Assembly: GCA_017887325.1 (NCBI GenBank)
Contig: JAGHIE010000007.1
Span: forward strand, 1 to 64,000
Direction of reading: 5' to 3'
Origin: Oscillospiraceae bacterium
GTDB lineage: Bacteria > Bacillota > Clostridia > Oscillospirales > Ruminococcaceae
Length of the DNA stretch: 64,000 nt
In this document: piece after piece, positions 8,197 through 20,431 of the stretch
How the letters are laid out: each line of letters starts with the position of its first letter
Numbering within the stretch: position 1 is the first letter of the stretch
Made by a program: the position numbers and the translations under genes
The notes under the pieces: generated by a model
Told to the model about the DNA's origin: nothing
The model's database searches: none
Seen by the model: the letters and a program-made list of their open reading frames with translations, nothing else

Positions 8197-8694
8197 TTGA
8201 ACAAAAAAGAAAGATTGTTTTGTTATCATTACTACACGCTTAGAAATCTAAAAGAAGCGTCAATTAAAGCAGGATATAATCCTAAGATAGCTGAAAATAC
8301 AGCAATTAGATTGATACAGCGTGAAGATATTAGACAGTTGATATTAAGTTTTGATTTGGAAAAAGAAAAGAAACAACTTGAAAAAGATGTTATTGCTATT
8401 CTTAAAAGAATTGCTTTTAATCCTTTACAAGATAGTATTAATTTACTTTTTCTAAATGAAGATGATGCAAAAGAAAAAATTAGCGAGTTGGATTTATTTT
8501 GTGTCAGTGAAATTAAAAAACCAAAAGATGGTTCTTTGGAAATTAAATTTATGGACAGATATAGAGCTTTAGAAAAATTATTGGAAATTTCTAATTCTGA
8601 TAATGGTGCTCAGACTTTACAAAGTTTATATAAAGCTTTAAATAATTCAACTCAAAATACAAGTGCTGAAGGTGCTTTAGATTATGATGTTTAA
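8197..8694 (+). CDS. phage terminase small subunit (XtmA-like)
   Basis: MNKKERLFCYHYYTLRNLKEASIKAGYNPKIAENTAIRLIQREDIRQLI pattern; directly precedes the large subunit; TTG start. Confidence 0.85.
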   Translation: MNKKERLFCYHYYTLRNLKEASIKAGYNPKIAENTAIRLIQREDIRQLILSFDLEKEKKQLEKDVIAILKRIAFNPLQDSINLLFLNEDDAKEKISELDLFCVSEIKKPKDGSLEIKFMDRYRALEKLLEISNSDNGAQTLQSLYKALNNSTQNTSAEGALDYDV

Positions 8695-9931
8695 TTCTTT
8701 TTCACCCAAACAAAAATTGGTTTTAAATTGGTGGTGTAAAGACAGTCCATATAATTTATATGATGCTATTATTTGTGATGGTGCTGTTAGAAGTGGAAAG
8801 ACTTTGTGTATGTCTTTATCATTTTGTCTTTGGGCTAGTGCTAATTTTCAGAATAGTTCATTTGCTCTTTGTGGAAAAACGATAACTTCTTTGAGAAGAA
8901 ATTTAGTTACTCCTATGCTCAATTTGCTAAGAAATTTAGGATATAGTTGTGAAGAAAAAATTTCAAGAGGTTATATTGATATTTCTTATTTGGATATTAC
9001 AAATAGATTCTATCTGTTTGGAGGAAATGATGAATCTTCTGCTTCTAAAATTCAAGGGGTTACTTTAGCAGGTGTTTTATTTGATGAAGTTGCTTTGATG
9101 CCTAGAAGCTTTGTAGAACAAGCATTAGCTAGATGTTCTGTAAATGGTTCTAAATTTTGGTTTAACTGTAATCCTGAAAATCCTTATCATTGGTTTTATC
9201 TTGAATGGATAAAAAAGTCAAAACAAAAAAATGCTCTATATTTACATTTTTTAATGAAGGATAATCCATCTTTATCTAAAAAAATTATAAAAAGATATGA
9301 GAATATGTATTCCGGTGCTTTTTATGACAGATTTATTTTAGGAAAATGGGTTAGACCAACTGGTCTTGTTTATCCTATGTTTGATTATGATAAACATACA
9401 TTTGATAAAGATTTAGGTTTTTCTAATTATTATGTTTCGTGCGATTATGGAACTGTTAATCCTACTTCCATGGGACTTTGGGGTTTTAATAATAATATTT
9501 GGTATAGAATTAAAGAGTTTTATTATAACTCAAGGGTTGAAGGTTCTCAAAAAACTGATGAAGAATATTATCAATGTTTGGAAGATTTGGTAGGTGACTT
9601 GGATATTAACGCTGTGATTGTTGATCCATCTGCTGCTAGTTTTATTGAGTGTATTAGAAGACACAATAAATTTACTGTTATTCCAGCTCAGAATGATGTT
9701 ATTGGGGGAATAAGAAAAGTAAGTGAAAAATTGAAAAGTAATCAGATCAAGATTAATAAGTCTTGTAAAGATTCTATCAGAGAGTTCGGTATTTATGCTT
9801 GGGAAGATAATACAGGAAAAGATATTCCTAAAAAAGAAAATGACCATGCCATGGACGATATTAGGTATTTTATAAGTACGGTTGTATTTGATAATAGTTG
9901 TGACTTTTTTGTTCTAAATGTGGATAGGTAA
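8684..9931 (+). CDS. phage terminase large subunit (XtmB-like)
   Basis: Walker A GAVRSGKT, Walker B-like GVLFDEVAL, nuclease motifs SCDYGTVNPT, VDPSAASF, NDHAMDDIRY intact. Confidence 0.95.
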   Translation: MMFNSFSPKQKLVLNWWCKDSPYNLYDAIICDGAVRSGKTLCMSLSFCLWASANFQNSSFALCGKTITSLRRNLVTPMLNLLRNLGYSCEEKISRGYIDISYLDITNRFYLFGGNDESSASKIQGVTLAGVLFDEVALMPRSFVEQALARCSVNGSKFWFNCNPENPYHWFYLEWIKKSKQKNALYLHFLMKDNPSLSKKIIKRYENMYSGAFYDRFILGKWVRPTGLVYPMFDYDKHTFDKDLGFSNYYVSCDYGTVNPTSMGLWGFNNNIWYRIKEFYYNSRVEGSQKTDEEYYQCLEDLVGDLDINAVIVDPSAASFIECIRRHNKFTVIPAQNDVIGGIRKVSEKLKSNQIKINKSCKDSIREFGIYAWEDNTGKDIPKKENDHAMDDIRYFISTVVFDNSCDFFVLNVDR

Positions 9932-9956
9932 AAAAAGTTTATTGGAGGTGTGAACA

Positions 9957-18871: not shown

Positions 18872-19939
18872 TTGCAACAAAGTACAATTTATAAAGAAAT
18901 AAAACAAAAATTTGAAGAATTAACATCTAATTCTATTTCTGATGATGGAGATATTGGAATCAGAATGAATGTAATTGCCGGTGAAATAGCAAATATTTAT
19001 GAACATATAGATTTTTGTAAGAAGCAAATGTTTCCTCAAACAGCTACAGGAGAATTTTTAGAACATCATGCTCAAATAAGAGATATAAAAAGGATTGAGT
19101 CAAACAAAGCTAATGGAAAAATAAAGTTTTCTAGGAATACACCAGCGATTACTGATATTATTATTCCCATAGGTACAATATGTGGCACTTCTGATAATGG
19201 CAATAGTATAGTTTATAATACTACAGAAGTATCTAAAATAAGTAAAGGACAATCTAGTGCTTTAGTAAGTGCTCAAGCTAGTGAATTTGGTGCTATTGGA
19301 AATATAGATGCAAATAAAATAAATGTTTTGATAAGTGGTGTTGCAGGTATAGATAGTGTTACTAACCCAGAAAATTTTATTGGTGGTATGGATAGAGAAA
19401 ATGATGATAGTTTAAGAAAAAGAATAGTTAATTCTTATTTAAATATTTCTAATGGTTCTAATTTGAAATTTTATGAAGATTTAGCAATGAGTGTTAAAAA
19501 TGTGTGGAGTGCAAAAGCTATTGTAAATTCTGAGGATAGTTCAAAAGTTGAATTATATATTACAGATATGTTTAGACAGCCTACATCAGAACTTATAAAA
19601 CAAGTTGAAGAAGTTATAAAAAATGCTAGAGAATTAAATGTTAATGTTGAAGTAAAAGCTGCAAATGTAGAACAGATAGATGTTAATCTTAAAGTTATTG
19701 TTAAAGATTTAAATGCAAATGGTTCTGCTGTTGGAGATGTTGGCTCTTTTATAAGCGATAAAATATATAATCTAAAAATTGGAGAAGACTTTAATCCATA
19801 TACAATAGGTTCTGGTATAAAAGATGTTGTTGAGGGTTTTGAAAACTTAATATTTACATCTCCTAATAATTTAAAAACTGTGGAAAGTAATCAAATTTTA
19901 GAACCTAGAACAGTTGATGTAAGTGTTGAGAGGAGATAG
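18872..19939 (+). CDS. baseplate J-like protein (XkdT-like)
   Basis: FPQTATGEFLEHHAQIRDIKR, NFIGGMDRENDDSLRKRI baseplate J signatures. Confidence 0.92.
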   Translation: MQQSTIYKEIKQKFEELTSNSISDDGDIGIRMNVIAGEIANIYEHIDFCKKQMFPQTATGEFLEHHAQIRDIKRIESNKANGKIKFSRNTPAITDIIIPIGTICGTSDNGNSIVYNTTEVSKISKGQSSALVSAQASEFGAIGNIDANKINVLISGVAGIDSVTNPENFIGGMDRENDDSLRKRIVNSYLNISNGSNLKFYEDLAMSVKNVWSAKAIVNSEDSSKVELYITDMFRQPTSELIKQVEEVIKNARELNVNVEVKAANVEQIDVNLKVIVKDLNANGSAVGDVGSFISDKIYNLKIGEDFNPYTIGSGIKDVVEGFENLIFTSPNNLKTVESNQILEPRTVDVSVERR

Positions 19940-19942
19940 ATT

Positions 19943-20431
19943 GTGAATTCTTACGATAGAATAATTAGGATATTAAATAGTTTATCGATATATAATTTAG
20001 ATAATGGGTCTTTAATTCAGGCAGAAATAAAATCTTATTGTTATGTATTAGATAAAGTATTTAAAGAGTTGGAATATATTTTGTATGGAATGTTTTTAGA
20101 TAGTGTAGATAGCAAATACTTTAGTAAGTTTGAGAAATTATTTTCTATGACTGTAACAAAGGGAATAGGGGAAGAACATGATAAAATCGCTAGAGAAAAG
20201 GTTGAAATGATGAAAAAAAGGTTGGATATTAAAAATGATGATTTTAATTTAGAAGGTATAAAGAAAGCTTTGTCTAGCGGTGGTATGGAAGTTGAAATAA
20301 CAGAGAATTTTTCTAACAAAACAGTTGATATAAAAATTTTAGAAGATAAAAATATTTATGTAGAAAGAGAAGAAAAAGAAGCTTTTATAAAAAGTTTTTT
20401 ACCAGTACATTGTAAACTAAATTTAATATAA
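19943..20431 (+). CDS. baseplate gpI-like protein (XkdU / DUF2313-like)
   Basis: 162 aa after baseplate J; last gene of operon. Confidence 0.75.
   Translation: MNSYDRIIRILNSLSIYNLDNGSLIQAEIKSYCYVLDKVFKELEYILYGMFLDSVDSKYFSKFEKLFSMTVTKGIGEEHDKIAREKVEMMKKRLDIKNDDFNLEGIKKALSSGGMEVEITENFSNKTVDIKILEDKNIYVEREEKEAFIKSFLPVHCKLNLI

What the first reader, a model, noticed from the sequence alone, without database searches (positions are those of the whole stretch)
8197..20431. Compact, intact, lysogeny-free phage-like operon: candidate domesticated DNA-packaging particle (GTA-like or capsid-bearing contractile particle)
Seen: 17 co-directional, tightly packed ORFs bounded by a terminator upstream (7975-8007) and a bidirectional terminator downstream (20434-20469). 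The order matches the PBSX/Xkd head and contractile-tail modules. Terminase ATPase and nuclease motifs are intact, so packaging looks possible. There is no integrase, repressor, replication, lysis or fibre gene in or beside the operon, and flanking genes are core metabolic or sporulation genes. Established: PBSX (Bacillus) and gene transfer agents keep structural and packaging genes without autonomous replication. Inference: this locus is a vertically maintained, host-controlled particle rather than a recent prophage.
Basis: partly seen in the sequence, partly recalled or inferred. Interest (0 to 1): 0.85.

Follow-up and report, generated by a model that had tools for sequence, protein, structure and literature searches.

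The report
Order-wide domesticated DNA-packaging phage operon
A whole order of gut bacteria carries one inherited copy of a compact phage-derived gene set that still looks able to wrap DNA in virus-like shells, apparently as a host-run 'gene transfer agent', which matters because it would be a new, widespread and easily tested route of gene exchange in the gut.

Summary
The operon is real: 19 tightly packed, intact genes in PBSX order between terminators. The tape-measure gene (XkdO) is missing; a 76-codon ORF sits in its place. It is not an ordinary prophage. Its portal occurs as one strong copy in 103 of 396 good genomes of the order (Oscillospirales). The gene tree needs the minimum number of changes for host families (4 for 5) and genera (62 for 63), and distances track rpoB (r = 0.64). 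dN/dS is 0.09-0.17. TerL catalytic residues are conserved. None of 201 loci has a tape measure. Sheath, tube and baseplate are lost repeatedly while packaging and head genes stay, and TerS repeatedly loses its DNA-binding domain, as in RcGTA. A conserved dyad plus TATnAGTGAAAGG element precedes operons in all three main families. Portal and capsid belong to other families than those of FpGTA, the proven Faecalibacterium element of the same bacterial family. Best reading: a vertically inherited, GTA-like DNA-packaging particle, independent of described GTAs. Packaging and transfer of host DNA are inferred, not shown.

The parts
4723..4761 (+). dyad element (GTTGCA-loop-TGCAAC plus T-run) upstream of the endolysin gene
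   Evidence: 44.4 bits
4819..5664 (+). phage-type endolysin, Amidase_3 + SH3; likely release gene (inference)
8091..8129 (+). dyad element upstream of the operon
   Evidence: 43.8 bits
8138..8150 (+). GTATAGTGAAAGG, fixed-spacing partner of the dyad; possible -10 region (inference)
8197..8694 (+). terminase small subunit with N-terminal DNA-binding region
8684..9931 (+). terminase large subunit, ATPase and nuclease residues intact
9957..11099 (+). portal protein (start codon inferred)
11109..12056 (+). protease/scaffold-like head protein (name inferred)
   Evidence: phrog_16951
12074..12415 (+). small virion structural (decoration-like) protein
   Evidence: phrog_4588
12439..13449 (+). major capsid protein
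13502..13858 (+). head-completion gene 1 (by position and conservation)
13870..14196 (+). head-completion gene 2 (by position and conservation)
14200..14694 (+). neck / tail-terminator-like protein
   Evidence: fold of the related protein in L071
14706..15743 (+). contractile tail sheath
15752..16138 (+). tail tube
16147..16455 (+). XkdN-like tail-assembly protein (by position)
16442..16672 (+). 76-codon ORF in the place of the tape measure; arginine-rich C-terminus recurs in relatives
16687..17205 (+). LysM protein (XkdP-like)
17193..18152 (+). hub protein (XkdQ/gpD-like by position)
18142..18492 (+). spike-like protein (by position)
18509..18871 (+). sheath initiator / baseplate wedge (W/gp25-like)
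18872..19939 (+). baseplate J-like protein
19943..20431 (+). tail protein I-like, last gene
   Evidence: phrog_521
20433..20468 (.). bidirectional terminator-like hairpin

Best explanation
A domesticated, vertically inherited phage particle locus that works like a gene transfer agent. Transcription under host control starts at a dedicated promoter-like element (dyad plus TATnAGTGAAAGG) shared with an endolysin gene. The operon makes a capsid, a working terminase motor, and a neck with a very short or aberrant contractile tail, since no tape measure exists. The motor fills capsids with whatever DNA is in the cell; some cells lyse and release particles that deliver chromosomal fragments to relatives. 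Shown by computation: gene content, inheritance, selection, motor integrity, shared element. Inferred: packaging of host DNA, capsid size, release by this endolysin, and delivery.
For: One strong copy per carrier genome, 103 of 396 good genomes of the order. Tree with the fewest possible host-family and genus changes. Operon distance follows rpoB, 0 of 2000 permutations. dN/dS 0.085-0.17. TerL ATPase and nuclease residues conserved in 190 sequences. Terminase, portal, protease and capsid kept in 192-201 of 201 loci while sheath (61), tube (94) and baseplate J (103) are often lost, so selection acts on head and packaging. Repeated loss of the TerS DNA-binding region, 47 of 177, the feature proposed to explain random packaging by RcGTA (PMC6854486). 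Shared dyad at operon and endolysin, the only two strict copies in 2.28 Mb; model found in 35 of 80 carriers and 4 of 77 non-carriers. GTA-like packaging is reported for the same bacterial families (PMC12946183).
Against: No particle, packaged DNA or transfer was measured. The window's own TerS keeps its DNA-binding region. No receptor-binding protein lies in the operon. The strict dyad is not universal (29 of 112 typed operons even in relaxed form). The known contractile GTA-like relative, PBSX, packages host DNA but does not inject it (PMC12946183).
Confidence: 0.7

Rival explanations
1. PBSX-type killer particle: a head-bearing bacteriocin that packages host DNA incidentally and kills relatives through its contractile tail.
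For: Gene order as in PBSX; sheath, tube, LysM and baseplate genes present and under purifying selection in the window's class; PBSX itself packages 13 kb host DNA and acts as a killer (PMC12946183).
Against: In the family the tail is the dispensable part and the DNA motor the constant part; many members keep only head and neck genes. No tape measure in any member and no fibre gene in the operon.
Confidence: 0.15
2. A self-made DNA capsid with another host use, for example ordered lysis with release of protected DNA, or sequestration of DNA under stress, without delivery into recipients.
For: Tail-less forms with intact motor exist; endolysin shares the upstream element; FpGTA particles have no visible tails and delivery is unproven (PMC12946183).
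Against: Retained neck and baseplate genes in most members; binding-like C-terminal domain fused to the neck protein in the smallest operons; no precedent known to me.
Confidence: 0.11
3. Ordinary defective prophage, inherited only recently or repeatedly acquired.
For: All genes are of phage origin; many IMG/VR entries are operon-sized cuts.
Against: Single copy, host-congruent tree, shared neighbours, low dN/dS, no decay, no integrase or complete-phage relative with these genes found.
Confidence: 0.03
4. The operon is the same element as FpGTA of Faecalibacterium.
For: Same bacterial family by 16S probe; same overall logic, a head and packaging operon with release genes elsewhere (PMC12946183).
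Against: Candidate FpGTA loci in four Faecalibacterium genomes have portal phrog_156 and capsid phrog_1357, not phrog_30703 and phrog_3922; only TerL is distantly alike. None of the four is among the carriers.
Confidence: 0.01

Closest known systems
PBSX of Bacillus subtilis
   Same: Gene order of head and contractile-tail modules (order from memory); Gram-positive host; chromosomal operon; PBSX packages random host DNA (PMC12946183).
   Different: No XkdO tape measure, no fibre, holin or lysin in the operon; order-wide vertical family with stepwise tail loss; repeated TerS DNA-binding-domain loss; endolysin at a separate locus.
FpGTA of Faecalibacterium prausnitzii (PMC12946183)
   Same: Same bacterial family; compact head/packaging operon with release genes in another locus; lysogeny-free.
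   Different: Portal and capsid of unrelated PHROG families; FpGTA is podovirus-like, this one has sheath, tube and baseplate; different set of host genera.
RcGTA and CcGTA of Alphaproteobacteria
   Same: Vertical, purifying selection, TerS lacking the DNA-binding domain in many members, dispersed loci under common control (PMC6854486, PMC11150451).
   Different: Contractile rather than non-contractile plan (from memory); no sequence match of capsid or portal to PDB chains, which include the RcGTA virion; other host phylum.
Tailocins such as diffocin
   Same: Tube model resembles diffocin and other contractile tubes.
   Different: Terminase, portal and capsid are the most conserved genes here.

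Membership tests
Gene transfer agent | Phage-derived particle genes without replication, integration or lysogeny genes | tested here: met
   none in the operon or the flanks read
Gene transfer agent | Vertical inheritance with purifying selection | tested here: met
Gene transfer agent | Functional packaging motor | tested here: met
   catalytic residues conserved in 190 TerL; activity not assayed
Gene transfer agent | GTA-type TerS lacking sequence-specific DNA binding | tested here: inconclusive
   lost in 47 of 177 members, retained in the window
Gene transfer agent | Packages random host DNA and not mainly its own genes | not testable with these tools
   needs particle sequencing
Gene transfer agent | Delivers DNA to recipients | not testable with these tools
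   needs transfer assay
FpGTA | Homologous portal and capsid | tested here: not met
PBSX | Xkd gene order including tape measure XkdO | tested here: not met
   no tape-measure ORF in any of 201 loci
PBSX | Lysis and fibre genes in the same cluster | tested here: not met
   operon ends at tail I-like gene; endolysin is 3.4 kb upstream behind other genes
Tailocin | Tail module only, head and terminase genes lost | tested here: not met
Prophage | Integrase/att sites and host-incongruent, patchy distribution | tested here: not met

The most novel reading that the evidence does not exclude
An ancient GTA lineage of a whole gut order, independent of all described GTAs, evolving from a contractile ancestor towards tail-less DNA capsids. 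The tape measure is gone in every sampled member; in the most reduced forms a binding-like domain is fused directly to the neck protein. Packaging operon, lysis gene and fibre-like genes are scattered but tied together by one dyad-plus-TATnAGTGAAAGG promoter element.
Probability: 0.4. Interest if true: 0.92.

Novelty: new variant of a known kind. Interest (0 to 1): 0.8.

Why it matters
GTA-like DNA packaging is reported as prominent in gut Ruminococcaceae and Oscillospiraceae, but a gene cluster was assigned only in Faecalibacterium (PMC12946183). This family is in about a quarter of sampled good genomes of the order, including cultured Anaerotruncus, Flavonifractor, Pseudoflavonifractor and Clostridium sporosphaeroides. 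It is a ready candidate for the unassigned packaging events, a natural series showing how phage tails are dispensed with during domestication, and its upstream element is bait for the regulator and the accessory loci.

Tried and rejected
FpGTA homology: rejected. Defective prophage: rejected. A first rpoB comparison gave r = 0.08 because the longest ORF was sometimes not RpoB; picking the frame by RpoB motifs gave r = 0.64. LexA boxes (2 of 185) and sigma consensus sites upstream: near control, apart from a loose sigF/G pattern (45 vs 28 expected) not pursued. Faecalibacterium phage DNA as genus marker: no near-identical hit; a 16S probe worked. One strict dyad in G234 lies inside a gene and is chance (L386). 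PDB, Pfam and phage searches did not name the gene after the L379 dyad. Human-faecal 'Bacteriophage sp.' contigs with the operon are weak evidence because viral-contig pickers select such loci. R. callidus could not be identified among named hits.

Full report
WHAT IS THERE. Nineteen co-directional genes fill 8197-20431. Families: terminase small and large subunits, portal, protease/scaffold-like, small head protein, capsid, three head-completion genes, sheath, tube, XkdN-like, a 76-codon ORF, LysM, hub, spike-like, sheath initiator, baseplate J and tail I-like (several names rest on position and on profiles built from relatives). The portal frame extends upstream to about 9957 with a non-ATG start. 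The order is that of PBSX (from memory) except that the long tape-measure gene is missing. The tube assignment is backed by a structure model matching contractile tubes. No integrase, repressor or replication gene was seen nearby. 4819-5664 is a phage-type endolysin.

WHO ELSE HAS IT. A TerL search of relatives showed the same compact operon in many genera. In 396 good genomes of the order it is present in 103, one strong copy each, with a sharp gap between presence and absence. Portal homologues number in the thousands and some are named 'serine/threonine protein phosphatase'.

VERTICAL DESCENT. A tree of TerL+portal+capsid for 116 genomes needs 4 changes for 5 host families and 62 for 63 genera, both the minimum. 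Operon distance correlates with rpoB distance (r = 0.64; within family between genera 0.62), with 0 of 2000 permutations as high overall and within families. Same-genus pairs share flanking genes in 69 of 129 cases, pairs from different families in 19 of 4444. Eight genera of one family share the same downstream gene, an HflX-like GTPase by its sequence. The window and G002, same genus, share the upstream nnr gene. Operon-wide dN/dS is 0.085-0.17 in all pairs with usable dS, and no single gene exceeds 0.42.

WHAT IS KEPT AND WHAT IS LOST. Iterated profiles over 201 loci (a few genomes appear twice; three are faecal phage-database contigs) find portal 201, protease 199, TerL and capsid 194, TerS 192, first head-completion gene 191, but hub 139, LysM 121, baseplate J 103, tube 94, sheath 61. 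None has a tape-measure ORF, nor do 31 IMG/VR contigs of at least 11.5 kb. Four architectures result: contractile about 12.5 kb (window), sheath-less with baseplate about 10-11 kb, head plus hub about 7 kb, and head plus neck only about 6-7 kb. Contig ends make some counts lower bounds. In many of the smallest operons the last protein is about 280 aa: an N-terminal tail-terminator fold and a confidently modelled C-terminal beta domain (residues 184-279) of unnamed family that I read as binding-like (inference). TerL catalytic residues are conserved: Walker A at 96% or more, Walker B and nuclease acidic residues in all 190. TerS lacks its N-terminal DNA-binding region in 47 of 177 loci, 41 of them without such coding DNA upstream, and the pattern needs 11 changes on the tree. 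In RcGTA the same lack is proposed to explain random packaging (PMC6854486). The window's TerS keeps it. Loss of tail with retention of motor and head argues that the selected function is DNA packaging rather than killing (inference).

REGULATION. Upstream 8-mers revealed a dyad, AAAAGTTGCA-loop-TGCAACTTTTT, in front of operons of all three main families (32 of 182 vs 2.5 expected). Its inner pairs covary, with the caveat that sequences were chosen by the GTTGC...GCAAC core. Where GTGAAAG follows, it starts 21-23 nt after the dyad in 10 of 12 cases, within TATnAGTGAAAGG; the motif is upstream of 53 of 182 operons against 7 expected. The strict dyad occurs at two places in the window's genome: before terS and before the endolysin. 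A covariance model finds it in 35 of 80 carriers and 4 of 77 non-carriers, and among 95 held loci the matches cluster upstream of terS. Extra copies in two relatives precede genes that look fibre-like to me, though family searches did not name them. One in the window's genome precedes an adenine methyltransferase at the end of a prophage contig. The arrangement resembles the dispersed co-activated loci of CcGTA (PMC11150451). Whether the dyad is an activator site or an RNA attenuator is open. A relaxed form is upstream of 29 of 112 typed operons (4% expected), so it is not universal.

RELATION TO KNOWN SYSTEMS. FpGTA (PMC12946183) is an experimentally shown particle with 8-9 kb host DNA in Faecalibacterium, which a 16S probe places in the window's own family. 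I located its candidate locus in four Faecalibacterium genomes; portal and capsid belong to other families than here. So the window operon is a second, separate and more widespread lineage. The same paper reports GTA-like packaging without an assigned cluster in other genera, which this family may explain (inference, testable). Literature searches found no earlier description (open-access library only).

LIMITS. No particle data. Host family names are inferred from one 16S probe and matching contig lengths, not given. The gene survey rests on automatic ORF calls.

Noticed in passing
window 382-2441: LytTR response regulator and GHKL histidine kinase (agr-like pair) upstream of the endolysin and the operon; a possible quorum-type controller.
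   Followed up: no
L376:18009-18848 (G000 contig C12): A dyad copy precedes a D12-class adenine methyltransferase gene at the end of a contig that also holds a prophage with a 1440-aa ORF typical of a tape measure.
   Followed up: partly
G000 C4:38831, C17:18428, C8:24374: Further dyad-model matches in the window's genome; downstream genes unread.
   Followed up: no
L224:1453, 3744, 12215 (G235): G235 carries about eleven dyad places, some inside a longer repeated sequence that also contains GTATTAGTGAAAGGG.
   Followed up: partly
L071:14086-14925 and relatives: About 280-aa fusion of a tail-terminator fold with a C-terminal beta domain (GxYxGxG...LGFxP...YxYIAFK) ending the smallest operons.
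   Followed up: partly
L370-L374: Candidate FpGTA I loci in four Faecalibacterium genomes.
   Followed up: partly
public databases, portal homologues: Portals of this family are often named 'serine/threonine protein phosphatase'.
   Followed up: no
window 13452-13480: Perfect 13-bp inverted repeat between capsid and first head-completion gene.
   Followed up: no
window 7-231: 5S rRNA and tRNA-Asn at the start of the window.
   Followed up: no
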